Of a DNA stretch of 54,489 nt, positions 35,278 through 52,670 are shown one piece after another. The notes beneath the pieces were generated by a model. The model was given only the letters and a program-made list of their open reading frames with translations, was not told the origin of the DNA and searched no databases. Position numbers and translations under genes: made by a program. Source of the stretch: Clostridiales bacterium (GTDB taxonomy: Bacteria > Bacillota > Clostridia > Lachnospirales > Lachnospiraceae); assembly GCA_021201535.1 (NCBI GenBank), contig JAJQEU010000102.1:1-54489 (forward strand). Direction: 5' to 3'. Each line of letters starts with the position of its first letter. Position 1 is the first letter of the stretch.

Positions 35278-35316
35278 AGGGCGCACTTACTCACCACCCG
35301 TAAAACGGGCGGTGGT
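35278..35316 (-). other. MobQ-type origin of transfer (oriT)
   Basis: On the minus strand the sequence TAAGTGCGCCCT (35289 to 35278) matches the nic-region consensus of MobQ relaxases such as RSF1010, with the expected cut after TAAGTGCG. Immediately 5' of it on that strand is the inverted repeat ACCACC...GGTGGT (35293-35316). A hairpin just upstream of nic is the known MobQ layout. The relaxase gene begins 356 bp away. Confidence 0.8.
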
Positions 35317-35644
35317 ATCCTCCCCTGCGGTCCGGAACGTGCGCTCTTCACGAAATGTCCACTGGACACTTCTCCAGAGGGGGCAGGCGATTCCGCAGGC
35401 GGAACCTCCTGTGCAGCCAACTGAACCGTCTGAAGTAATCAGACAGTTCCTGCCCCTGACGTATCCGGTGCAGATGATCGGCATGGAACCCATACCGATG
35501 TTGGCTGTCTGCGAGAACCTGTCACAGCACAAGGCACGCACTTCGGGTGTGGCAGCTTTGTCGCAGATATGGAGGCACCGTGAAATGCGACGCCTCATCT
35601 TCTTTTTTGCGAAAAGAAGCAAAAATGGAAAGGACGGTGATCGA
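35317..35644 (+). other. leader region between oriT and the relaxase gene
   Basis: No convincing gene. It contains a TGTCC-ACT-GGACA palindrome (35357-35369) and a hairpin CTTCTTTT...AAAAGAAG (35599-35619) directly before the relaxase ribosome site. The open frame upstream of 35645 lacks a start with a ribosome site. These palindromes could be relaxase or accessory-protein sites. Confidence 0.5.
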
Positions 35645-37360
35645 ATGGCGATCTACCATTTAGAGGCAAAGGTCATCAGCCGGGGCAACGGGCGTTCCGC
35701 CTGCGCTGCGGCTGCTTATATGAGCTGCTCCCGCATCTATAACGATTATGACGGGATACAGCATGATTACAGCAGAAAGCAGGGGCTTGTCTGGTCACAG
35801 GTCTTCCTTCCGGAGAATGCCCCGCCGGAATGGCAGAACCGTTCCGTCCTCTGGAATGCCGTGGAAGAAAATGAAAAAACGAAGGACAGCCGTCTTGCCA
35901 GGGAGTTTGTCGTGGCACTTCCGGCTGAACTGGAACCGGAGAACTGGAAGAATCTGCTGTCAGAGTATATCCGCAGCCAGTTTGTCGATGAGGGCATGTG
36001 CGCGGACGTCAGCATCCATGATACGGACGGGCATAACCTCCATGCCCATATCCTGCTGACCGTGCGCCCGCTTGATGAAAATGGGAAATGGCAGTATAAG
36101 ACAAAGAAGGAATATCTCTGCATCCGGGACGGCGAGGAACGCGGATTTACCGCCGATGAATGGAAAAGCGCACAGTCTGAGGGATGGGAAAAACAGTACC
36201 CGTACAAACCGGAAAAAGGCAAGAAGAACATATATCTGTCCCCATCGGAAGCCGAACGCCGGGGGCTGGTACGCGCGGGCAAGCATCCCAAAAGCACAAA
36301 ATACGGGCGGCAGAATCCCGTCTCCGAACGCTGGAACAGTGAGGAGCAGCTCATCCTCTGGCGGGAAGCATGGGCGGATATCTCCAACCGCTGTCTGGAA
36401 CAGGCCGGATGTGAGGAACGCATTGACCATCGCAGCCATGCGGAGCGCGGCATAGCAGAACAGCCGACAATCCATGAGGGCGTTTTTGCGCGGAACATGG
36501 AGGCAGACGGGATTGCTTCCGACCGGTGTGAAATAAACCGGCAGATAAGGTCAGACAACCGCCTGCTCCGTGAGCTGAAAAAACAGATGGAACGGCTGGC
36601 AAAAACCGTCAGGGAGTCTGTTCCTGCTGTCGCCGATGCACTTGAGAAGCTCCGGGGGAAAATGGTCCTGCTCCAGTATAACCTCCTGCACAGCCTGGGC
36701 CAGTCGCAAGCGCTGGAGGATAAGATCAGCAGCGTATCCCCTGTCATGGAAGAATATAAGGCAGTAAAAAAACAAATCCGGAAGAAACAGTCGGAGAAGA
36801 AAAAGCTGGCCGGTGAGAAGAGTGACACCGGCGTTTTCAGCCCGCTCCGCCATGTCCGGCTGAATCAGCAGATCGCGGAGCTGACAGAGGATATCGGGGA
36901 ATTAATGACGCGGAAGAAACAGCTGATGTATGAGGTTGGATGCCATGATGAAACAGAGATGAAACTGGCAGAAAATACTTTTGCCCGGATGGAGGAAAAT
37001 ATGGGGAAACTGGATGAACAGCAGGATCGCCTCAAAGAACGGCTCATGGAAAGTGCCGGGCGTTTTATCGAAACGCGGGAAAATATCGGCACAGAAAGGG
37101 CAGATGCCCTGCTTGATGCCCGTGCATCACAGCGTCAGGAGTACCGGGAACGGTATCTGCTGCGCCTCCGCACAGACCTTGGGCAGAAGTTTGACGGGCG
37201 TCGCCTGCACCGTGCCGAAGATCTGGTTGACCAGAGAAACGGTGAAGAGCCGGGAGAAATCAGGGAACGCCTGGCTGAGCTTAGGCAGGAACGTGAAGCA
37301 GAACGCCGCAGGGAACGTGCAGGAAAAGAAAAAAAGAAATCGCATGGGATTTCCCTGTGA
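35645..37360 (+). CDS. MobA/MobL-family relaxase (MobQ)
   Basis: A 571-residue relaxase that nicks oriT and pilots the strand in transfer. The N-terminal domain (about 1-200) has motif I with RSACAAAAYMSCSRIYN (Tyr candidate), and the metal-binding HUH motif in GHNLHAHILLTVR (about 129-141). The C-terminal half is long, charged and coiled-coil-like (KKQIRKKQSEKKKLAGEKS and further E/R/K-rich segments), typical of MobL proteins. ATG at 35645 follows AAAGGACGGTGA. No coupling protein or secretion genes are adjacent, so a helper element is needed. Confidence 0.9.
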   Translation: MAIYHLEAKVISRGNGRSACAAAAYMSCSRIYNDYDGIQHDYSRKQGLVWSQVFLPENAPPEWQNRSVLWNAVEENEKTKDSRLAREFVVALPAELEPENWKNLLSEYIRSQFVDEGMCADVSIHDTDGHNLHAHILLTVRPLDENGKWQYKTKKEYLCIRDGEERGFTADEWKSAQSEGWEKQYPYKPEKGKKNIYLSPSEAERRGLVRAGKHPKSTKYGRQNPVSERWNSEEQLILWREAWADISNRCLEQAGCEERIDHRSHAERGIAEQPTIHEGVFARNMEADGIASDRCEINRQIRSDNRLLRELKKQMERLAKTVRESVPAVADALEKLRGKMVLLQYNLLHSLGQSQALEDKISSVSPVMEEYKAVKKQIRKKQSEKKKLAGEKSDTGVFSPLRHVRLNQQIAELTEDIGELMTRKKQLMYEVGCHDETEMKLAENTFARMEENMGKLDEQQDRLKERLMESAGRFIETRENIGTERADALLDARASQRQEYRERYLLRLRTDLGQKFDGRRLHRAEDLVDQRNGEEPGEIRERLAELRQEREAERRRERAGKEKKKSHGISL

Positions 37361-37647: not shown

Positions 37648-38493
37648 ATGGACAACGAAATGATCATTACAGAAGAATTGATTGAGGCATATGCAGACTG
37701 GCTGGGTGGGGAGGAACGCGCGAAAAATACAATAGACAAATACCGGCATGATCTGAAGATCCTGTGCGCGTGGCTTGACGGGCGCCCGGTGACAAAAGTT
37801 CTTGCATCAGAATGGAAAGCCGACCTTCAGGCGCGTTACGCTGCGGCAAGCGTAAATTCCATGCTGGCGGCAGCAAACGGTTTTTTTCGATGGATGGGAT
37901 GGACGGGCATCAAACTGAAATTCCTGAAAATCCAGAGGAAGGTGTTCTGTGATAAAAACAGGGAGCTGGATAAACCGGATTACCAGAGGCTTATTGCGGT
38001 GGCACTTTCCATGGGTAAATCGCGGCTTGCGCTTTTGATGGAGGTGCTCTGCGGACTTGGTCTTCGCGTATCGGAGTTAAAATATATCACGGTGGAAGCG
38101 GCGGGGGCCGGCAGGGCAGAAATTCAGATGAAGGGAAAAATCCGCACAGTCATCATCTCTAATAAATTGGCGCGGAAACTCCTGAAATACGCGAAAAAGA
38201 AAAATATATCCTCCGGGGAAATTTTCATCACTAAAAGCGGCAAAAGCATGTCCCGCGGCCAGATCTGGCAGGAAATGAAGAAACTGGGCGAAAATGCCGG
38301 TGTAGAATCAGAAAAAGTATTCCCCCACAATCTGCGGCACCTGTTTGCCCGGACGTACTATAGAATATATAAGGACATCGCTAAACTGGCGGATATCCTC
38401 GGACATACTTCAATCGAAACCACACGCCTTTATCTGATTTCCACAGGTGAGGAACATGCGGAACAGATCGAAAGTCTGGGGCTGGTATCCTGA
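37648..38493 (+). CDS. tyrosine recombinase, probable DNA invertase of the adjacent promoter
   Basis: A 281-residue integrase-family recombinase with all expected catalytic residues: R140 (GLGLRVSEL), a lysine near 164, H227 and R230 (PHNLRHLF), H253 (ILGHTS) and nucleophile Y262 (TTRLY). The N-terminal SAM-like core-binding domain spans about 8-90. AGGAGG sits 7 bp before the ATG at 37648. The stop codon lies within the left 25-bp inverted repeat of the segment 38490-38887, an intimate link suggesting it inverts that segment. It could also act on other sites in the element; it is not the element's integrase, which is the serine recombinase. Confidence 0.88.
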   Translation: MDNEMIITEELIEAYADWLGGEERAKNTIDKYRHDLKILCAWLDGRPVTKVLASEWKADLQARYAAASVNSMLAAANGFFRWMGWTGIKLKFLKIQRKVFCDKNRELDKPDYQRLIAVALSMGKSRLALLMEVLCGLGLRVSELKYITVEAAGAGRAEIQMKGKIRTVIISNKLARKLLKYAKKKNISSGEIFITKSGKSMSRGQIWQEMKKLGENAGVESEKVFPHNLRHLFARTYYRIYKDIAKLADILGHTSIETTRLYLISTGEEHAEQIESLGLVS

Positions 38494-38514
38494 TAACCAT
38501 AACAAACATTATGT
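38490..38514 (+). repeat. left inverted repeat of the invertible segment (IRL)
   Basis: A 25-bp repeat containing ATAACAAACATTATGT, matching the complement of 38863-38887 at 23 of 25 positions. Its core has CATAA-N6-TTATG arms with a CAAACA spacer, as expected for a tyrosine recombinase crossover site. It overlaps the recombinase stop codon; both orientations keep a TGA there. Confidence 0.85.
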
Positions 38515-38551
38515 ACATAGGCAAGCGAAAGACGTATGCACTTCTTCTTAT

Positions 38552-38580
38552 ATTATAGTCGTGCATGGCACCAAATGCAA
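38552..38580 (-). promoter_or_regulatory. promoter inside the invertible segment, now pointing left
   Basis: On the minus strand TTGCAT (38580-38575), a 17-bp spacer and TATAAT (38557-38552) form a near-consensus sigma-A promoter. An imperfect inverted repeat (CCAAATGCAA, TTGCAATTTGG; 38572-38602) covers the -35. Inversion would move it to about 38797-38825 facing right. Confidence 0.8.
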
Positions 38581-38684
38581 GCAGAAAATTTGCAATTTGG
38601 CACCAACGTCCGTACTGTTTTTCTCTTAAAACGGCCCGGCATCAGAAGATTGCATAAATCCCCTCCTAGCCTTAATAAAACGGC

Positions 38685-38752
38685 AAAAAATGGGTGCAAA
38701 AATGAAGGCGGCAGAAAAAGCCTTTCTGCGGTCCGATTTTTCGCGCCCATTT
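38685..38752 (-). terminator. long hairpin terminator within the invertible segment
   Basis: The arms, each about 30 nt, pair with small bulges around a GCAGAAA...TTTCTGC centre. On the minus strand the hairpin ends in CCCATTTTTT. It would stop transcripts entering from behind the internal promoter in either orientation, on the strand that the promoter reads. Confidence 0.65.
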
Positions 38753-38862
38753 GGCTGTAAATATTGAAGAAGCCATCAGGTTGCGCCATTTTATATGATT
38801 GACAAAGGCTTTCCATGATTACCATGTCAGGGAAAAACAGCATAAATCCAAATCCGTATAGG

Positions 38863-38887
38863 ACATAATGTTTGTTATAGCTATCAG
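38863..38887 (-). repeat. right inverted repeat of the invertible segment (IRR)
   Basis: The partner of the repeat at 38490-38514, in opposite orientation, with the identical 16-bp centre ATAACAAACATTATGT read on the minus strand. It lies 393 bp before the start of the secreted protein at 39280. Confidence 0.85.
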
Positions 38888-38914: not shown

Positions 38915-39157
38915 ATGCTGCCGGAGCCGGACTTTCCTGAATTGCGCTGTGGGCAGGTGCCTCTTCTGAGAAATCAGCAGTTCATTTATGTAAAAATCGT
39001 CTGCATTTCAAAACAGCTGATTGATGGCAAATTCAGACAAATCTTCTGCAAAGAAGTTGTTGACTGGTATCTGTATCCTGCTATCAAAAATCAGGCTGTT
39101 ACAAAAGAGGAAAAGACAGAGGCACAGGATTGTGAGGTGAGGTTGAACAGGAAATGA
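38915..39157 (+). CDS. possible small protein in the leader of the beta-helix operon
   Basis: An 80-codon frame (starting LPEPDFPELRCGQVPLLRNQ) with AGGAAA a few bases upstream of the ATG. It lies between the right inverted repeat and the 39280 gene, so it would be the first frame on the ON transcript. No family is recognised. It may be a gene remnant left when the switch was acquired; low confidence. A poor TTGACT-N16-TATCAA promoter-like sequence (39060-39087) is inside it and could give basal expression. Confidence 0.25.
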   Translation: MLPEPDFPELRCGQVPLLRNQQFIYVKIVCISKQLIDGKFRQIFCKEVVDWYLYPAIKNQAVTKEEKTEAQDCEVRLNRK

Positions 39158-39279: not shown

Positions 39280-42200
39280 ATGTCAAAGAAATTGACAAAA
39301 CGGTTGTTGAGTCTGGTTTTGACGTTGTCCATGATGTGCAGCCTGGCGGTCACGCCGGCGTTAGCTGCAGACGGATCGTCTGATACTGCAGCATCAGGGA
39401 CAGTCACAGCCAGCGATTCCGAAGACCCCGAATACATCGAGGCGGGCAATCTGATTGCTGAGGATGAGGGCTGTGTTGAGATTGTTGAAACAGACCCGGC
39501 AACAGAATCAGGTCAAGGTAATTCTGCGGATAATGGCGTGGCAGTGGCAAGTGATGACACTGAAACTGATGATGCAGACAGCAGCGTAATTTCTGTATCA
39601 AATGCAGACAGCTTTGCAGAAGCTGTTAGCACTGCAAATGCATCCGAATCTGCCGTTACCATTCAGCTTACAGACGATGTGGCGTTAGACACCAGCGCTA
39701 TATTTTCCGGCACAGTAGCTGTAACGCTTGACCTGGCAGGCCATGCGATTACCAGAGGTTCCAGTACTACAGGATATCTGATTGGTATTGGATCTGGCTC
39801 AAATCTGACGGTGACGGATTCTGTAGGCGGAGGATACATTGACGGCGCTACCTATACGGTAAATGGAACCACTTATGTCGGATACAGTATCCTTACAAAT
39901 GGTACTTTGGCGCTCAATTCCGGTACGCTGAAAGGTTATTACGGACTGTACATTTCCGGCAGCGAGGCAAATGTTACTATTTCCGGCAGCGGAGCTGTTG
40001 AAGGAACTTCCAGAGGTATTTCCATGAACAGCGGTACATTGACTGTTGAAGCAGGGACAATTACAGGCGGAACCTACGGAATGGTTCAGTTTACCGGTGA
40101 GACAACAATTAACGGCGGCACCATAGGAAGTGCAGGAGAAGGCAGAGGCATTCAGCATCAGGGCGGAAGCCTTACTATAAACGGCGGCACTGTCCTCGGA
40201 GAATATGCGGTTACATCGAATGCATACAATGCCAGCACTACATTAACAGTTACGGGCGGCATCATCGGTGATACAAGTGACAGCACTGATGACTTGTCAA
40301 GCATGGCGTTAGTTGGCGTGTTTGTGATCGGTTCTACAACCACCTATGATGCCAAAGCTTATATTTCAGGCGGCACAATTACGGCCTATGACAGCGGTGT
40401 ATATATTCAGGGCAATGTAGCTGCCGGTGATACCAGCGAAAAGGATTCCTACAACGCAACGGTTACTGTATCTGATGATGCAGTAATTGAAACTGTATAC
40501 AATTCCACATATGGCTATAGCGACAGCGGCGTTTCTGTGTGGGGCAAAGGTGCTGTTTTGAATGTTGAGGGCGGTACTATAAGTTCTGGCGTTTTTGCAA
40601 TCGCAGGTAACGGAACATATAATACATCGGGTTCTGGTTATAGCAATGCTGGTACTGTAATCAATATTACTGATGGTGAAATCAGTTCCGGTGGTACAGC
40701 GATTTATCACCCACAGTATGGTAGTCTTATCATCAAAGGTGGAACTATTACCGGGGAGACAACCGGCATTGAAATCCGTTCTGGTGAGGTTAGCATTGAA
40801 GGAGGGAAGATTAGTGCAGAGTATGATCCGTTGACCTATACGGAAAATCCTAGCGGGACTACTATCGCTGGGGCTGCGCTTGCGGTTGCTCAACATACTA
40901 CCATGCTGGATATCGCGATCACAATAAGTGACGGAGAATTTGAAGGTTTCTTCGGTGTGTATGAGAAAAATGTGCAGGAAAATGAATATACTGACGGAAC
41001 AGACTATTCGGATCATGTCAGTGTTGAAATTACAGGTGGAAAGTTTCTGACAACTTACCCTGTAAAAGATGCAAATTATGATGATATTACGACAAATGCT
41101 GAATATAAGGGATATGCTGTTTATGAAAACTCTGAGGGCGTAATAAGCATAAAAGGTGGATACTACAATAGTGATCCCAGTGAGTATTGCGTATCTCCTT
41201 ACTATGTGGTATCCAGAAGTGACAACGTATCGACTGGCGATCTGGCGTTGACCTACTACTACTATGTTACTGGCAACAGGATTGTTGGGACTGGTATGGA
41301 TTTGGAAAGCGGTGTCATTGAAATAGAGTTCTATGTTAGGGCAGACGCAACAGACTATGCTGCTATCGAGACTTTTACATTGGATGAAGACGAACTGGAA
41401 CTTTCGGATTATGACACTGCAACAGTTGAAGGTTATTCCTGTTATGTAATACCGAAAACGGTTGTGGCTAATAAAATGACCGAAGAATTTGACATTGTAT
41501 TGGAGTTATATGGAGGCTATGCTATTAAGCAAACTACAAGTTTGAAAACTATGGTTAAGGATTGGTTAGATAATGCAGACGAAAGTACCTTGGCATCCTC
41601 TGAAGCAGAAGTTCTCATTACAATGTTGAATCTTGGCGCAGCTACTCAGCTTTTAGATGACAGTAGTTTGACGGCTTCTAAACTGGCAAATGAAGGGTAT
41701 GCATATGGAACTGATGCCACTGTATCCACTCTCACTGAAATTTATAATAGTTTATCATATAGTTCTCTGAGCAATTATAAGCTGACTGCTTCGGGAACAG
41801 GAGATAAGGTGGGATTAAAAGGGATTGGCGTAACATGCGATTCGGACTTTGGTGTAGTGTTGTATACGTCTACAAATTTGGACGAATATAAGGAAGAAAA
41901 TAGAATAGAAGTTCAAGTTGATGGCGTTACCTGTGATAACATTGAAATTTCGGACTATGCAGTGGAAGTTTCGGATCTTAGTGCTGTTGATTTGACGAAG
42001 GAAATTACTTTTATTTTCACTGATGGGGATGGAGACACATATTCATTGACTGCTACAGGAATTTACTTTGCAAGATTTCTGATGAATTCTAAATATTATG
42101 CTGATAGCACAATCAATTTTGCAAAGTGCATGTATATGTATATTAGCGCAGTGAATGAACTAATCTCTGAAAATTCCCAAGAAGGAGGATCAACAGCAAT

Positions 42201-42339
42201 GATATATGTATTTAATGAACCGGAAATTGAAGTTGTTAGTCTTGCCATGTATGACGATGAAGTTACCACTAATGTAAGTTCGGGTGAAGTCAGTGTAGGA
42301 GGCGATACTGACGTTGAAGAAGATGATCTGTTTAATTGA
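39280..42339 (+). CDS. large secreted beta-helix-like surface protein, candidate phase-variable factor
   Basis: A 1019-residue protein with a signal peptide (about 1-30, ending TPALAA), an acidic Ser/Thr-rich linker and a long repetitive region (about 100-650). The repeats have short turns of GGT(I/V)-type strands (for example INGGTIGSAGEGRGI, SGGTITAYDSGVYI), as in right-handed beta-helix or pectate-lyase-like proteins. A non-repetitive C-terminal domain (about 650-1019) follows. There is no LPXTG, S-layer or choline-binding anchor, so it is secreted or held by an unknown mechanism. GGAGG lies 7 bp before the ATG at 39280. Base composition becomes more AT-rich in the second half. It heads the modification/export operon. 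Confidence 0.8.
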   Translation: MSKKLTKRLLSLVLTLSMMCSLAVTPALAADGSSDTAASGTVTASDSEDPEYIEAGNLIAEDEGCVEIVETDPATESGQGNSADNGVAVASDDTETDDADSSVISVSNADSFAEAVSTANASESAVTIQLTDDVALDTSAIFSGTVAVTLDLAGHAITRGSSTTGYLIGIGSGSNLTVTDSVGGGYIDGATYTVNGTTYVGYSILTNGTLALNSGTLKGYYGLYISGSEANVTISGSGAVEGTSRGISMNSGTLTVEAGTITGGTYGMVQFTGETTINGGTIGSAGEGRGIQHQGGSLTINGGTVLGEYAVTSNAYNASTTLTVTGGIIGDTSDSTDDLSSMALVGVFVIGSTTTYDAKAYISGGTITAYDSGVYIQGNVAAGDTSEKDSYNATVTVSDDAVIETVYNSTYGYSDSGVSVWGKGAVLNVEGGTISSGVFAIAGNGTYNTSGSGYSNAGTVINITDGEISSGGTAIYHPQYGSLIIKGGTITGETTGIEIRSGEVSIEGGKISAEYDPLTYTENPSGTTIAGAALAVAQHTTMLDIAITISDGEFEGFFGVYEKNVQENEYTDGTDYSDHVSVEITGGKFLTTYPVKDANYDDITTNAEYKGYAVYENSEGVISIKGGYYNSDPSEYCVSPYYVVSRSDNVSTGDLALTYYYYVTGNRIVGTGMDLESGVIEIEFYVRADATDYAAIETFTLDEDELELSDYDTATVEGYSCYVIPKTVVANKMTEEFDIVLELYGGYAIKQTTSLKTMVKDWLDNADESTLASSEAEVLITMLNLGAATQLLDDSSLTASKLANEGYAYGTDATVSTLTEIYNSLSYSSLSNYKLTASGTGDKVGLKGIGVTCDSDFGVVLYTSTNLDEYKEENRIEVQVDGVTCDNIEISDYAVEVSDLSAVDLTKEITFIFTDGDGDTYSLTATGIYFARFLMNSKYYADSTINFAKCMYMYISAVNELISENSQEGGSTAMIYVFNEPEIEVVSLAMYDDEVTTNVSSGEVSVGGDTDVEEDDLFN

Positions 42340-42491: not shown

Positions 42492-42758
42492 ATGAAAGTA
42501 AACAAAGATTTTATCCTGCGGGATATGGGAAGTAAATGCGTCGCAGTGCCCATTGGAAAGACCTATGAAACATTCAGGGGATTTATTAAAATGAATGAGA
42601 GTGCGAAGTTCATTTGCGAAGCACTTGCCGTAGGCAAAACTGAGGATGAGGTTGTGGCAGAAATGACTGACAGGTACGGAATTAGCATGGAACATGCAGC
42701 TACCTCCTATCAAAAAGCGGTCGTAAAAATGATGGAAGCAGGTATGCTGGAAGAGTAA
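42492..42758 (+). CDS. PqqD-like peptide recognition/chaperone protein
   Basis: An 88-residue PqqD-family protein. PqqD-like proteins and RiPP recognition elements bind leader peptides. The pattern is visible: MKVNKDFILRDMGSKCVAVPIGK beta-strands and MNESAKFICEAL, followed by helices with TEDEVVAEMTDRYGI. In RiPP clusters it hands the precursor to modifying enzymes. GAGGAG lies upstream of 42492. It is followed by the HPr-kinase-like gene with a 50-bp gap. No short precursor gene is obvious nearby, so its client may be the secreted beta-helix protein or an unseen peptide. Confidence 0.85.
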   Translation: MKVNKDFILRDMGSKCVAVPIGKTYETFRGFIKMNESAKFICEALAVGKTEDEVVAEMTDRYGISMEHAATSYQKAVVKMMEAGMLEE

Positions 42759-42808: not shown

Positions 42809-43534
42809 ATGATGAGACTGGAGATTGCCGGTATTCCTGTTGGTATTAATAATAAATATAACTTTTCTGATTGGAACTTTTGTGGGCACGAAACAGAGCG
42901 GCTTCCACTTCTGGAAGTGTCGGCCACGGAAAGAGAAATTGATAAAGAGTATAACAGGATAACTCCTGAATTTGATATTGTCCAGGCTGAACGAAATATT
43001 CTCTATCAGAAAATCTGTTTTGGAATGCTTGACTATGATGGTTTCCTGATTCATGCGGCGGTTGTTGCCGTAGATGGAGAAGCCTATGCCTTTACAGCGC
43101 CAAGCGGGACAGGGAAAAGTACGCACGTAGGATATTGGATGCAGGTGTTTGGCTCCCGCGCACAAATAGTAAATGGGGATAAGCCGATCATCCGTCGAAT
43201 AGACGGATGTTTTTATGCCTGTGGAACGCCATGGCGCGGTAAAGAACATCAGGGAGCTGCCATAAATGTTCCGTTGAAAGCACTGTGTCTGTTGGAGCGT
43301 GGGGAAGAAAATGTTATTGTTCGAGCAACTGATGCGGATGTTATAGACAAATTATTCTTTCAGATTCCTATTCCGTGGGAAGCGCATCAGGTAGAAAAGC
43401 AGATTGATCTCCTAAATCAGCTCATGAAGGAAGTCCCCATATTCAAGCTGAGCTGCAATATGTCTCAGGAAGCTGCTGTTGTAGCATATAATGGTATAAA
43501 TAATCTAGGGGAGAAATCATGTGAAGGCAGGTAG
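42809..43534 (+). CDS. HPr-kinase-like P-loop kinase
   Basis: A 241-residue P-loop protein. Walker A is APSGTGKSTHVGYWM (about 97-112) and a downstream acidic segment NGDKPIIRR (about 120-128) corresponds to the metal/phosphoacceptor region of HPrK/PEPCK-type enzymes. In lasso-peptide clusters homologous kinases phosphorylate the precursor's C-terminus. The substrate here is unknown. ATG at 42809 has AAGAGAAG upstream; 42812 is possible. The stop is 9 bp from the exporter start. Confidence 0.78.
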   Translation: MMRLEIAGIPVGINNKYNFSDWNFCGHETERLPLLEVSATEREIDKEYNRITPEFDIVQAERNILYQKICFGMLDYDGFLIHAAVVAVDGEAYAFTAPSGTGKSTHVGYWMQVFGSRAQIVNGDKPIIRRIDGCFYACGTPWRGKEHQGAAINVPLKALCLLERGEENVIVRATDADVIDKLFFQIPIPWEAHQVEKQIDLLNQLMKEVPIFKLSCNMSQEAAVVAYNGINNLGEKSCEGR

Positions 43535-43543
43535 AAGGAGTAC

Positions 43544-45664
43544 ATGGAGTATAATTCTATTTTGAAAGAATTGGAGCAGGAAGAATGCATCATAATTTCG
43601 ACAACAGGCACCAGTATGCAGCCCCTTCTCTACACTTACTCTACTCATGTGCTGATCCGCAAAATAGAAGGTAAGCCAAAAAAGAATGATGTTGTACTCT
43701 ATGTCCGCCCTGATGGAACAAAGGTGCTTCACAGAATTATCGGTTTTGACGGCGATACTTGTCTGATTCGTGGAGACAACACGTTCGTTTTGGAACGTGT
43801 GCCGTTGTCAGCCGTGAAGGGAGTTATGGAAACTGTCTGGAAAGAGGAAAAGGAGATTCACTGCACGGACAGGCTCTATCGGCTGTATGTCTGGTTCTGG
43901 AATCTGATCTATCCTCTCCGGTTCTTAAAATATAAAGTAAAAGCAGGCATCGTATCTATGGGAAAACGTCTGTTAGGTGACACTTCCCTTGCATGGATAG
44001 CAAAGATGGTGCGTGGAAGCCTTGCAGGCATCATTATTCTGACGGTATGCACAGGCATCCGTGCTTTCCTGTCAGTTTTACTTGCCCTCGTGATGCGTAA
44101 TGCTATAGATTACGCTGTTGCCATGGATAAACCCATGTTCCTGAAGTGGGCGGGGATCTTTCTTGGCATTATAATTGTCCAGATTGCCTTGTCCGCCGTT
44201 ATCCGGCAGAAGGATGAATGGACACGGGCAACGATAGAGAATCGGTTGAAGCAGCACAGCTATGAGAATATCCTTCATAGCACGTATTCCGGGCTGAAAG
44301 CATATCATACGGGCGAGCTGCAGAACCGTATGACCAGTGATGTAAAGATTGTGGCAGATTATGCAACGGAGATCATCCCCGGCGCTGTGTCAATGGCAGT
44401 GCAGCTTGTTTGCGCTTTGTTTATCCTGATGCTTCTTGACTGGAGGTTCGGCAGCCTGTTCCTTGTTGGGGGAATTTTAATGTTGTGCGTGACTTTCCTC
44501 TTCCGCCGCAGGATGAAGACTCTGCATAAGGAAGTGCAGGAATCAGACGGAATGCTGCGTTCATGGCTGCAGGAGTCCGTGGAGAGCCTTTTAATACTGA
44601 AAGGCTTTGAAGCAGAGAGTATGGCTGCCGGAAAAACAGAGGAAAAAGCTGCTATCCATAAAAAAGCGCGGATGAAAAGACGCACATTCTCCAATATCTG
44701 TAACATAGGCTTCGGCGCTGTGATGCAGGGAAGCTATCTTTTTGGACTGGTATGGTGCGGAATTGGGATTTTAAACGGCACGTTAACCTATGGAACACTG
44801 ACTGCTGTCCTTCAGCTGATCAGCCAGATCAGAAGCCCCTTTGCCAATATCTCCGGCTTTGTGCCCCAGTATTACTCTATGCTGGCGTCTGCGGAACGGC
44901 TGATTGAACTGGAAAAGCTGCCGAAGGAAACCGGCGCAAGGAAGAGCCTGCCGGATTTCAGGGCGATTTGCGCCAAAAACCTTACGTTCATCTATGATGA
45001 CGGCGAGGAAGAGGTGATCAGCAATGCTTCTTTCACCATCGAAAAAGGGGAGCTTGTCGCGCTGACCGGCATCTCCGGTATCGGAAAAAGCACCCTCTTA
45101 AAAATCCTGCTTGGGATTTATCCCCCTGTATCGGGGCGGCTGTATGCAGACTGTATGGATCAGGAGATTGATATAGATCCAGGCACAAGGCACTGGTTTG
45201 CCTATGTCCCCCAGGGGAATATGCTGATGTCCGGCAGCATTTATGCGGCTGTGGATTTTTTACACGCTGCTCCTTACACCAGAGAGCAGAAAGAGCGGAT
45301 ACAGGCTGCCTGCCGGATTGCCTGTGCGGACGAGTTTATCAAAGAATTGCCGGATGGATATGATACCATTCTTGGAGAAAAAGGCGCAGGATTGTCCGAA
45401 GGTCAGATGCAGCGAATTGCGATAGCCCGGGCGATTTATCGTAATGCGCCAGTCCTGCTGCTTGATGAAGCAACGTCCGCACTTGATGAGGAAACGGAGC
45501 ACAGGCTGCTTCAAAACCTGAAAGAAATGGGCAGCCAGACTGTGCTGATCGTCACGCACAGGCCGGCTGCAATGGAGATTTGCAGCAAAAGGCTGGTGTT
45601 TGAACACGCCAAAATAACGATGGAAAAGATTGGAGGTGCCGCATGTACGGAAAAGGGAGACTGA
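43544..45664 (+). CDS. ABC exporter fused to an S26-like Ser/His peptidase domain
   Basis: A 706-residue protein. Residues 1-90 resemble an S26 (SipW/ER-type) signal peptidase catalytic domain: Ser24 in GTSMQPL, His63 in VLHRIIGFDGD and the GDN box at 77-79, but no membrane anchor. Then about six membrane segments (about 145-420) and an ABC ATPase: Walker A TGISGIGKSTLLKIL, signature LSEGQMQRIAIARAI, Walker B VLLLDEATSALD, and the H-loop TVLIVTHRP. The layout is that of a peptidase-containing ABC transporter, with a serine peptidase in place of the usual C39 cysteine peptidase. Its Ser-His dyad is intact. GGAG lies upstream of 43544. Confidence 0.88.
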   Translation: MEYNSILKELEQEECIIISTTGTSMQPLLYTYSTHVLIRKIEGKPKKNDVVLYVRPDGTKVLHRIIGFDGDTCLIRGDNTFVLERVPLSAVKGVMETVWKEEKEIHCTDRLYRLYVWFWNLIYPLRFLKYKVKAGIVSMGKRLLGDTSLAWIAKMVRGSLAGIIILTVCTGIRAFLSVLLALVMRNAIDYAVAMDKPMFLKWAGIFLGIIIVQIALSAVIRQKDEWTRATIENRLKQHSYENILHSTYSGLKAYHTGELQNRMTSDVKIVADYATEIIPGAVSMAVQLVCALFILMLLDWRFGSLFLVGGILMLCVTFLFRRRMKTLHKEVQESDGMLRSWLQESVESLLILKGFEAESMAAGKTEEKAAIHKKARMKRRTFSNICNIGFGAVMQGSYLFGLVWCGIGILNGTLTYGTLTAVLQLISQIRSPFANISGFVPQYYSMLASAERLIELEKLPKETGARKSLPDFRAICAKNLTFIYDDGEEEVISNASFTIEKGELVALTGISGIGKSTLLKILLGIYPPVSGRLYADCMDQEIDIDPGTRHWFAYVPQGNMLMSGSIYAAVDFLHAAPYTREQKERIQAACRIACADEFIKELPDGYDTILGEKGAGLSEGQMQRIAIARAIYRNAPVLLLDEATSALDEETEHRLLQNLKEMGSQTVLIVTHRPAAMEICSKRLVFEHAKITMEKIGGAACTEKGD

Positions 45665-50619: not shown

Positions 50620-50720
50620 TTTGTTGGGACAATAAATCGCGGGGTGAATACAGTGAAAAAATGTAAGACTTTCATTGCTATTTGTGCCACCAGCCAATGG
50701 GCGGCGGAATGGAGATTATC

Positions 50721-52670
50721 ATGAAAAAAACGAAATGCTATATTTATACGAGGGTGTCCACTACCATTCAGGTGGACGGGTACAGTCTGGACGCGCAGAA
50801 AGAAAAACTTAAACGTTACGCGGAATTCCAGAATATGGAGATTGTCGGAGAATTTTCTGACGAAGGCAAATCCGGCAAGAGCGTGGCTGGCCGTCCAGAG
50901 TTCCAGAAAATGTTGAAAAATATAGAAGACGGTGTGGACGGGATAGAATTTGTCCTTGTCTTTAAGCTGTCCCGTTTCGGGCGTAATGCTGCGGACGTAC
51001 TTAATTCCCTGCAGATGATGCAGGATTATGGCGTGAACCTGATCTGCGTGGAGGACGGTATAGACAGCTCCAAGGACAGCGGTAAGCTGATGATTTCCGT
51101 CCTGTCTGCCGTTGCGGAGATTGAGCGGGAGAATATTCTGGTCCAGACGATGGAAGGCCGGAAGCAGAAAGCGCGGGAGGGGAAATGGAACGGCGGCTTT
51201 GCCCCTTACGGATACGATCTGGTAAACGGTGAGCTGCAGATCGCGGAGGATGAGGCAGAAATTATCCGCCTCATATACGACAAGTACATCCATACGAATA
51301 TGGGGTTATCCGCGATTGCTGTCTACCTGAACCAGCATGGCTACAAAAAGAAGAAACGGCAGAATAATACACTGGATGCATTCGCAGTCTCGTTTATCAA
51401 GGGTGTGTTGGATAACCCGGTCTATTGCGGAAAACTGGCATTCGGGCGCAGGAAAAATGAGAAGATACCCGGGACAAGGAATGAATACCATACGGTCAAG
51501 CAGGATACCTATATGCTCAGCGAAGGAATCCACGAAGCTATCATTTCGGAAGAGGACTGGCAGCTTGCCCAGCAGAAACGGCAGGCTACAGGCGTCCAGT
51601 ATCCCAAGACCCACAGCCTCGACCATGAGCATATTTTATCCGGCATACTAAAGTGCCCTGTCTGCGGCGGCGGTATGTACGGCAATGTCAACCGCAAGAA
51701 GAAAAAGGACGGCACCCATTATAAAGATTATTTTTACTATGCCTGCAAGCACCGTCTCTGGATTAACGGCCACCACTGTGACTACAGGAAGCAGTGGGGC
51801 GAGGATATTATCAATGATGCAGTGGCGGAGGTAATCGTAAAGCTGGTACAGAACCCCAAATTTGAAGCAGGACTCAGAAAAAAGATTGATTCTAAAATTG
51901 ACGTGAGCGAGATGGAGGCTGAACTGGAAGGGCTGGAAAAGCAGCACCGCCAGTTAAGCGGGGCAAAGGCAAGGTTGGGACAGCAGATGGACAGCCTTGA
52001 CATATCAGACCGTTTCTATGAAAAGAAATATCAGGATATGGAGACCCGTCTGTATCGCCTGTACGACGAGATTGAAGCCGTAGAAAACAGCATGGAAGAA
52101 ATCCGAACCAGAATGTGGAATGTACAGCAGCAGAAAATATCAAGGGATAACGTCTACCAGTTCCTCTTGTATTTTGACAGACTGTATGACAGGTTCACGG
52201 ATTTGGAAAAGAAAAAATTCATGAACAGCTTTGTAGAACAGGTAGACATTTATGAGCAGGAGCAGCCGGATGGCCGAATCCTGAAGCACATCAAATTCCG
52301 GTTTCCTATCTTTTTTGATGATGAGGAAATACAGGATATTAGTTGGGACAACGAAAATACCGTTGAGACGGTGGTATTATTGTCCAAACTTCATTCGAAG
52401 CATCATATAGAGGTAGAATTACATATGGATGAGATGGATTTAACTGCTGCGGAAAGTAAGGCTACCTATGAAGAGATCAAAGCGTACGTCCTGGAGCATA
52501 GCGGATTGAATGTCAGCAATCTTTATATCGCGCAGGTCAAGCAGAAGTATGGTATCATTGAGCGGGAATGCTATAATAAGCCAAAAAGCGAGGATTCCAG
52601 GCAACCGAAGTGTCCGCCGGAGAAAGAGGCGGCGATTACGGAGGCGTTGAAGTATTTTAAAATGATATAG
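50721..52670 (+). CDS. large serine recombinase, element integrase, with an RlmD tail
   Basis: A 649-residue large serine recombinase. The resolvase domain (about 1-150) has Ser13 in YTRVSTTIQ, with downstream LDAQKEKLKRYAEFQ. The recombinase domain and zinc-ribbon (cysteines in LKCPVCGGG and CKHRLW, about 312-355) follow, then a coiled coil (about 390-470). Residues from about 547 (VETVVLLSK) to the end are not recombinase sequence but an RlmD-type tail homologous to the end of rlmD at 29.5-29.8 kb. In the excised circle this gene would instead end with the tail now on rlmD. ATG at 50721 is chosen (GGAG 6 bp upstream); 50709 is possible. Confidence 0.9.
   Translation: MKKTKCYIYTRVSTTIQVDGYSLDAQKEKLKRYAEFQNMEIVGEFSDEGKSGKSVAGRPEFQKMLKNIEDGVDGIEFVLVFKLSRFGRNAADVLNSLQMMQDYGVNLICVEDGIDSSKDSGKLMISVLSAVAEIERENILVQTMEGRKQKAREGKWNGGFAPYGYDLVNGELQIAEDEAEIIRLIYDKYIHTNMGLSAIAVYLNQHGYKKKKRQNNTLDAFAVSFIKGVLDNPVYCGKLAFGRRKNEKIPGTRNEYHTVKQDTYMLSEGIHEAIISEEDWQLAQQKRQATGVQYPKTHSLDHEHILSGILKCPVCGGGMYGNVNRKKKKDGTHYKDYFYYACKHRLWINGHHCDYRKQWGEDIINDAVAEVIVKLVQNPKFEAGLRKKIDSKIDVSEMEAELEGLEKQHRQLSGAKARLGQQMDSLDISDRFYEKKYQDMETRLYRLYDEIEAVENSMEEIRTRMWNVQQQKISRDNVYQFLLYFDRLYDRFTDLEKKKFMNSFVEQVDIYEQEQPDGRILKHIKFRFPIFFDDEEIQDISWDNENTVETVVLLSKLHSKHHIEVELHMDEMDLTAAESKATYEEIKAYVLEHSGLNVSNLYIAQVKQKYGIIERECYNKPKSEDSRQPKCPPEKEAAITEALKYFKMI
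52361..52372 (+). other. attR core inside the recombinase gene
   Basis: CGTTGAGACGGT matches 29503-29514 exactly. The sequence to its left is element (recombinase), that to its right the displaced chromosomal rlmD end. Confidence 0.8.

What the first reader, a model, noticed from the sequence alone, without database searches (positions are those of the whole stretch)
38490..38887. Invertible promoter next to its own recombinase, caught OFF, controlling a mobile beta-helix operon
Seen: a tyrosine recombinase gene with a full catalytic set ends within a 25-bp inverted repeat (23/25 identical to its partner 350 bp downstream). Each repeat has CATAA-N6-TTATG arms. Between them lies a near-consensus promoter pointing left (TTGCAT-N17-TATAAT, 38580-38552) and no equally good promoter pointing right. 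Known: tyrosine recombinases flip similar promoter segments in Clostridioides and Bacteroides. Inferred: in the other orientation the promoter fires into the operon at 39280, so the secreted protein and its maturation genes would be phase variable. I am not aware of a described inverton controlling this gene set on an integrative mobilizable element.
Basis: partly seen in the sequence, partly recalled or inferred. Interest (0 to 1): 0.9.

Follow-up and report, generated by a model that had tools for sequence, protein, structure and literature searches.

The report
Recombinase-linked invertible promoter on mobile element
A bacterium carries, on what looks like a mobile DNA element, a short DNA switch next to its own flipping enzyme that most likely turns a neighbouring gene cluster on and off; it belongs to a widespread kind of switch, appears to sit in the off position, and three related species carry one such switch in two different orientations.

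Summary
Confirmed, but less novel than claimed. The inverted repeat (38490-38514/38863-38887, 23/25) exceeds chance (best of 100 shuffles 19/25) and abuts a tyrosine recombinase gene with a complete catalytic set. Of 98 such genes with at least 500 nt downstream (window's included), 86 carry a repeat pair within 200 nt of the stop; the same test gives 11/195 far away and 5/97 upstream. Of 87 segments, 64 have the better promoter pointing at the recombinase (OFF), 12 at the cargo (ON), 11 undecided. In three species of the window's genus an apparently orthologous switch has collinear flanks, and one has the segment inverted: comparative evidence that this family inverts. The window's promoter fits the family position and points OFF. 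Not shown: inversion at this locus, or control of the operon. Its sites match the family weakly (only 9 and 7 of 162 arms score lower), and four of its six next-closest homologues lack a convincing pair. It very likely belongs to a known kind, Clostridia invertons linked to a tyrosine recombinase (PMC11892184); this cargo on a mobilizable element is the new part.

The parts
37648..38493 (+). tyrosine recombinase (281 aa, P0001), presumed invertase
   Evidence: PF00589 1.5e-24 and PF02899 6.5e-07; R140, K162, H227, R230, H253, Y262 at 98-100% in an alignment of 118 proteins, the window's included
38490..38514 (+). left inverted repeat / presumed recombination site; holds the recombinase stop codon
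38863..38887 (-). right inverted repeat / presumed recombination site
38515..38862 (.). presumed invertible segment (348 nt)
   Evidence: spacer within the family range: median 243, 5-95% 164-356
38552..38580 (-). promoter-like site TTGCAT-N17-TATAAT pointing left (OFF)
   Evidence: score 10.4; -10 ends 35 nt from the left arm's inner edge as called in the survey
38688..38752 (.). large hairpin inside the segment, role unknown
   Evidence: the 101-nt stretch 38670-38770 folds at -39.5 kcal/mol, z -3.1 against 100 shuffles
38915..39157 (+). 80-aa ORF between switch and operon
   Evidence: no Pfam or NCBIfam match; no match in the 19 other genomes of the genus searched
39280..42339 (+). large repeat protein, secreted and beta-helix-like by eye; first large gene of the presumed target operon
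   Evidence: ORF (its first possible start is 39262); no Pfam or NCBIfam match at E 0.01, only a weak PDB match, E 0.043
42492..42758 (+). PqqD-like protein
   Evidence: PF05402 1.9e-09
42809..43534 (+). HprK/ScmC-like protein
   Evidence: weak: TIGR04249 8.8e-05, below cut-off; no Pfam match
43544..45664 (+). ABC exporter with an N-terminal signal-peptidase-like stretch (stretch recognised by eye, no call)
   Evidence: PF00005, PF00664
45643..46608 (+). protein of unknown family, membrane-anchored by eye, also in the G198 cluster
   Evidence: only a below-cut-off Imm3 match; 57% identical in L164
46634..47809 (+). NTP_transf_5 nucleotidyltransferase
   Evidence: PF14907 9.8e-44
35312..37360 (+). 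MobA/MobL relaxase (element context)
   Evidence: PF03389 2.9e-87
50682..52670 (+). large serine recombinase (element context)
   Evidence: PF00239, PF07508

Best explanation
The stretch 38490-38887 is an invertible promoter (inverton) flipped by the tyrosine recombinase encoded immediately upstream, which recombines the two inverted sites at a shared asymmetric core (CAAACA). In the orientation sequenced, the segment's promoter points left, away from the operon and into the 3' end of the recombinase gene: OFF. After inversion the same promoter would lie about 35-40 nt inside the right arm and read towards the cluster from 39280 (repeat protein, PqqD, HprK-like, ABC exporter, NTP_transf_5): ON. 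Shown here: the anatomy, the family-wide architecture, the conserved promoter placement, and opposite orientations at apparently orthologous switches of relatives. Inferred: that this recombinase acts on these two sites, that the window's segment flips, and that the operon is its target.
For: Repeat beyond chance. Recombinase with intact conserved active site. 86 of 98 genes with at least 500 nt downstream (window's included) have a repeat pair within 200 nt of the stop; same test 11/195 far away and 5/97 upstream. Among the 81 of 88 sites with clear symmetry, the 6-nt centre is identical in both arms at 81 of 81 loci while 63 different centres occur. Promoter near one arm: 64 OFF, 12 ON, 11 undecided of 87. 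Homologous segments in opposite orientation between collinear flanks: L220 against L219 and L225; also paralogues L195/L196, left flank only. Contigs end within 500 nt downstream of the gene in 23 of 121 against 4 of 121 upstream, as mixed orientations would cause. No rightward promoter-like site above 7.5 between switch and operon.
Against: No flipped copy of this locus found: one copy in the own assembly, no megablast match in plasmids or phages. The window's arms score 10.2 and 7.5 on the family site model (median 26.3); only 9 and 7 of 162 family arms score lower, two other places in the window score above the left arm and four above the right arm. Of the six next-closest homologues with downstream DNA (53-56% identical), one has a pair at threshold (L038, first gene), one just below it (L034), four no convincing pair. 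The -35 is only 3/6, and a scan allowing a 15-nt spacer left the window undecided. The first large gene starts about 390 nt beyond the switch with an 80-aa ORF between. In six relatives of the cluster (upstream DNA held for four) there was no recombinase hit and no family-type repeat.
Confidence: 0.8

Rival explanations
1. A former inverton that no longer flips: the sites have decayed and the switch is locked OFF.
For: The window's arms are among the weakest of the family sites; four of six next-closest homologues lack a convincing pair; no flipped copy seen.
Against: The 16-nt core is kept at 15/16 with an identical 6-nt centre in both arms, and the recombinase keeps every catalytic residue. 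The closest homologue (L032, 72%) has, near its contig end, one site whose inner bases fit the family and whose outer bases deviate (read by eye), so site drift together with the enzyme is as likely as decay.
Confidence: 0.12
2. The segment flips, but its target is not the operon: the operon has its own promoter or is read through from the recombinase, and the switch controls the 80-aa ORF or only antisense transcription of the recombinase.
For: The 80-aa ORF lies first (38915-39157). A weak rightward promoter-like site (7.5, 39060-39087) lies between switch and operon.
Against: In relatives the ORFs after the switch on the same strand are often secreted, pilin-like, polysaccharide or signal-peptidase genes (by eye, not counted; one search was shown in part). 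The weak site lies inside the 80-aa ORF and has TATCAA for a -10.
Confidence: 0.12
3. The repeats are not recombination sites of this enzyme but a transposon or integration scar, or a terminator pair, beside an unrelated integrase.
For: The locus lies beside a relaxase and a large serine recombinase; four of six next-closest homologues lack a convincing pair.
Against: Repeat pair after the gene in 86 of 98 cases against 11/195 and 5/97 in controls; orthologous segments inverted.
Confidence: 0.03

Closest known systems
Clostridia 'inverton group 139' linked to tyrosine-recombinase 'invertase group 35' (hCom2 survey, PMC11892184; passages seen)
   Same: 33 invertons, 32 from Clostridia, tyrosine recombinase within 5 kb; the quoted Clostridium sp. 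D5 example has 26-bp repeats 205 nt apart and its orientation shifts in culture. Our family has repeats of about 20-30 nt and median spacer 243.
   Different: Their repeat motif and invertase sequences were not in the text I saw, so identity with our family is likely but untested. The passages do not mention the window's cargo. Another of their groups (145) is enriched near relaxase genes, so switches near mobilization genes are not new in themselves.
Clostridioides difficile switches: pdcB/Cdi2, and the RecV-dependent flg and cmr switches (PMC9286219, passages)
   Same: Invertible promoter with short imperfect repeats (Cdi2: 174 bp, 19-bp repeats) upstream of a target gene.
   Different: The pdcB recombinase was not identified and RecV serves more than one switch; here one recombinase gene lies directly beside one switch and the core differs from locus to locus.
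Invertible promoters with invertases on Bacteroidales ICEs (PMC8748976, abstract and passages)
   Same: Invertase plus invertible promoter carried on a transferable element.
   Different: Bacteroidales, with glycan and resistance cargo; the invertases were not compared here.
E. coli fimS switch with FimB/FimE (PMC8777976, passages)
   Same: A 314-bp invertible promoter upstream of the target operon, flipped by site-specific recombinases; that fimE lies beside the switch and faces the OFF promoter is recalled.
   Different: 9-bp repeats, two recombinases; relatedness not tested here.

Membership tests
Invertible promoter (inverton) | Inverted repeats beyond chance flanking a short segment | tested here: met
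   23/25, best of 100 shuffles 19/25
Invertible promoter (inverton) | Promoter-like sequence inside the segment | tested here: met
   Weak alone, supported by conserved placement in relatives; promoter activity not tested
Invertible promoter (inverton) | Both orientations observed | tested here: inconclusive
   Seen between relatives L219/L220/L225; not at the window locus
Invertible promoter (inverton) | Orientation changes expression of the neighbour operon | not testable with these tools
   Needs RNA data
Tyrosine recombinase | Catalytic R-K-H-R-H-Y set | tested here: met
   R140, K162, H227, R230, H253, Y262, 118-protein alignment (assignment of roles recalled)
Clostridia recombinase-plus-downstream-switch family found in this survey | Repeat pair within 200 nt downstream of the stop codon | tested here: met
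   Left arm starts one base before the TGA stop codon
Clostridia recombinase-plus-downstream-switch family found in this survey | Site consensus ACNACATAAT-N4-ATTATGTNGT | tested here: inconclusive
   Right half-site ATTATGT fits, left half-site poor; arms score 10.2 and 7.5 against a family median of 26.3
Inverton group 139 / invertase group 35 of PMC11892184 | Same repeat motif and same invertase cluster | not testable with these tools
Integrative mobilizable element | Relaxase plus own integrase, no conjugation machinery, defined ends | tested here: inconclusive
   MobA/MobL and large serine recombinase present; ends and absence of a conjugation set not worked out

The most novel reading that the evidence does not exclude
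The switch also controls its own enzyme. In OFF the promoter fires across the left arm into the 3' end of the recombinase gene on the antisense strand, which would hold recombinase low and OFF stable; in ON this brake is gone, so ON cells revert faster. That would account for the 64:12 OFF excess across 87 related switches, and would make recombinase plus switch a portable, self-limiting cassette with a private core sequence per locus, here carried on a mobilizable element.
Probability: 0.25. Interest if true: 0.6.

Novelty: new member of a known kind. Interest (0 to 1): 0.45.

Why it matters
If true, a mobilizable element brings a secreted-protein and export cluster into a new host already under a reversible switch. 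The survey gives a simple rule (recombinase stop codon, then a repeat pair, then cargo) that finds such switches from sequence alone; recombinase homologues at E <= 1e-40 occur in 63 of 391 genomes drawn across the class, own included (their repeats were not examined). It also supplies ON/OFF pairs between related species for testing why OFF dominates.

Tried and rejected
Plasmid and phage collections by megablast: no match. The exact 16-nt core in viral contigs: 47 stretches with one site each, not looked into; taken as chance. Beta-helix cargo shared with nine other switches: a first clustering joined them, but with low-complexity filtering the window protein matches only itself, so the claim was dropped. 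Terminators as part of the switch: 10 of 76 segments rightward against 1.0 expected, 7 against 1.5 leftward; enriched but not general, and none met the criterion in the window. Empty-site test for the element: rlmD and serine-recombinase searches in 20 genomes of the genus did not give clear ends; not pursued. Papers: no paper in the library holds all of 'invertible promoter', 'phase variation', 'tyrosine recombinase' and 'Lachnospiraceae'; other searches: (listings). A search for antisense or feedback on recombinase expression gave two papers, one of them on fim.

Rows dropped before counts: 5 gene hits as truncated or below 33% identity; L035 left out as a truncated gene; 1 of 88 segments as too short or N-rich; 7 of 88 sites with weak symmetry, the window's included, left out of the site table. 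At least three of the 88 repeat pairs (L042, L176, L229) look like chance matches by eye, while L034 and L087 have pairs just under the threshold. Not fetched: 4 of the 19 non-window places and 11 of the weakest or truncated places. The 15-60 nt promoter zone was chosen.

Full report
Observation. The two arms 38490-38514 and 38863-38887 are 23/25 complementary with 348 nt between; the best of 100 shuffles reaches 19/25. The left arm contains the stop codon of an ORF (37648-38493) that matches Phage_integrase and the N-terminal SAM-like domain. Its solved relatives by sequence at E <= 1e-10 are four XerA/XerC/XerD-type chains. The 16-nt core is found at only these two places in the own assembly with up to 2 mismatches, once exactly and once with one mismatch. 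The leftward promoter-like site exists, but its -35 is poor, about 7% of 60 shuffled segments reach its score, and with 15-nt spacers allowed a rightward site comes close (10.4 against 9.8), so that scan left the window undecided.

Survey. P0001 has homologues at E <= 1e-40 in 60 of 299 genomes of the family and 63 of 391 of the class, and at E <= 1e-30 in 13 of 20 of the genus, own genome included each time. I fetched 115 regions and added three loci and the window. 121 genes were kept and 5 hits dropped. Of the 98 genes with at least 500 nt of downstream DNA, the window's included, 86 have a repeat pair starting within 200 nt of the stop. The same test gives 11 of 195 at distant places and 5 of 97 on the upstream side. 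A stricter earlier test on the first 65 genes gave 43/55 downstream, 2/62 upstream and 3/432 far. At least three of the 88 pairs found in all look like chance and two further loci have pairs just under the threshold.

Sites. Centred on their symmetry axis, 81 of 88 sites share the pattern ACNACATAAT-N4-ATTATGTNGT. The six central bases are identical in both arms at 81 of 81 loci, while 63 different centres occur and 3 of 81 have a self-palindromic 4-nt centre. Because arms were found by similarity, some identity is built in, and the inner arm positions are also 96-100% identical. The telling contrast is that the four central positions carry almost no information across loci (0.01-0.29 bits) yet never differ within a locus, as a strand-exchange region that must match between partners would. 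The window's own pair shares its centre CAAACA but fits the family arms poorly: scores 10.2 and 7.5 against a median of 26.3, with 9 and 7 of 162 arms lower.

Promoter and orientation. Scanning 87 segments for a promoter whose -10 lies 15-60 nt from an arm (a zone chosen), the leftward site wins by at least 2 bits in 64, the rightward in 12, and 11 are undecided; without threshold 69 to 18. In scans without the zone the figures are 57 left, 12 right, 18 undecided, against 21, 16 and 50 expected from shuffles; 51 of 57 leftward and 10 of 12 rightward winners fall in the zone, against 22% in shuffles. By genome, of 59 scored, 39 show leftward and no rightward switches, 7 rightward and no leftward, 5 both. 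The window scores 10.4 leftward and 4.0 rightward in the zone, 35 nt from the arm, so it belongs with the OFF majority. Related species and paralogues are not independent, so the binomial value (1e-9) is indicative only.

Inversion between relatives. Of 34 segment pairs alignable at E <= 1e-4, the 30 pairs both classed OFF align in the same direction. The OFF/ON pairs L219/L220 and L220/L225 align in opposite direction over 61-62 nt; one OFF/ON pair (L076/L208) aligns in the same direction over 32 nt; L195/L196 (ON/undecided) align in opposite direction. L219, L220 and L225 come from three genomes of the window's own genus. Their recombinases are 64-71% identical, and the DNA on both sides is collinear (the recombinase gene, and a NusG-like gene downstream; PF02357 tested for L220), but the segment of L220 is inverted relative to the other two. 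L195 and L196 are paralogues in one genome: recombinases 87% identical, segment inverted over 249 nt at 73% identity; L196 ends just after its repeat, so its right flank cannot be compared. Contigs end within 500 nt downstream of the gene in 23 of 121 cases and within 500 nt upstream in 4, by genome 15 against 4 of 68. Mixed orientations would cause this, though repeats can break assemblies too.

Cargo and context. After relatives' switches lie large secreted proteins, pilin-like and sortase or signal-peptidase genes, polysaccharide operons and others (by eye, not counted). In the window the same-strand cluster is a large repeat protein, PqqD (PF05402), an HprK-like protein, an ABC exporter, a protein of unknown family and NTP_transf_5. 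The exporter has matches at E <= 1e-120 in 18 of 397 genomes, own included. In six fetched regions there was no recombinase hit and no family-type repeat; upstream DNA is held in four of them. The most complete relative, G198, has the repeat protein, PqqD, HprK-like, exporter and unknown protein without a switch. So switch and cluster are separate modules. MobA/MobL, RepA_N and TnpV genes and a large serine recombinase lie around them; the element's ends were not established.

Interpretation. The best reading is an invertible promoter served by its own neighbouring recombinase, OFF as sequenced. Shown: anatomy, family architecture, promoter placement, inversion between relatives. Inferred: enzyme-site pairing here, flipping here, operon as target. 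The main doubt is the window's divergent sites, and that of the six next-closest homologues with sequence one has a pair at threshold, one just below it, and four none that convinces (one of these, L036, has a 16/18 match 5.5 kb away, against 13-15 in shuffles).

Known and new. PMC11892184 (passages) describes inverton group 139, 33 invertons of which 32 are from Clostridia, linked to a tyrosine recombinase group, with a 26-bp/205-nt example in Clostridium sp. D5 whose orientation shifts in culture; its group 145 is enriched near relaxase genes. Our family is very likely group 139 or next to it; the motif itself could not be compared. Invertible promoters with invertases on ICEs are known in Bacteroidales (PMC8748976, passages). 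An invertible promoter before its operon is known from fim (PMC8777976, passages), and orientational control of fim switching is named in a title in the reference list of PMC2845655. In searches, none aimed at the OFF excess as such, I did not see this cargo under such a switch on a mobilizable element. I rate it a new member of a known kind.

Noticed in passing
L055 58 nt, L065 23, L070 12, L077 72, L085 99, L091 27 nt past the right arm, and two further loci at 33: A small protein family (77-149 aa, motif by eye YLSDL...SLxEWxDAVxYL) is an early ORF after the switch in 8 of 83 loci; the L055 member has no Pfam match.
   Followed up: partly
L219, L220, L225: The first gene after the switch is a NusG-like protein (PF02357, tested for L220 only), reminiscent of the UpxY antiterminators near Bacteroides invertons named in PMC11892184.
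   Followed up: partly
window:29503-29778 and 52361-52636: The 3' ends of the RlmD-like ORF and of the large serine recombinase resemble each other (66% over 133 nt, 79% over 39 nt), with TnpV next to the former; perhaps the element's ends.
   Followed up: partly
window:37437-37482: Perfect 17-bp inverted repeat with a 12-nt loop between the relaxase and the recombinase gene; possible terminator or regulatory hairpin.
   Followed up: no
window:47865-50210 (-): STAND-like NTPase with TPRs, weakly related to FxSxx-COOH system proteins, convergent with the operon end.
   Followed up: no
L080, after the right arm: Three tandem proteins (623, 480, 644 aa) with near-identical N-termini follow one switch.
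   Followed up: no
L052 1-80: The contig ends in two head-to-tail copies of a switch-like site just after the recombinase gene, perhaps an assembly artefact at an active switch.
   Followed up: no
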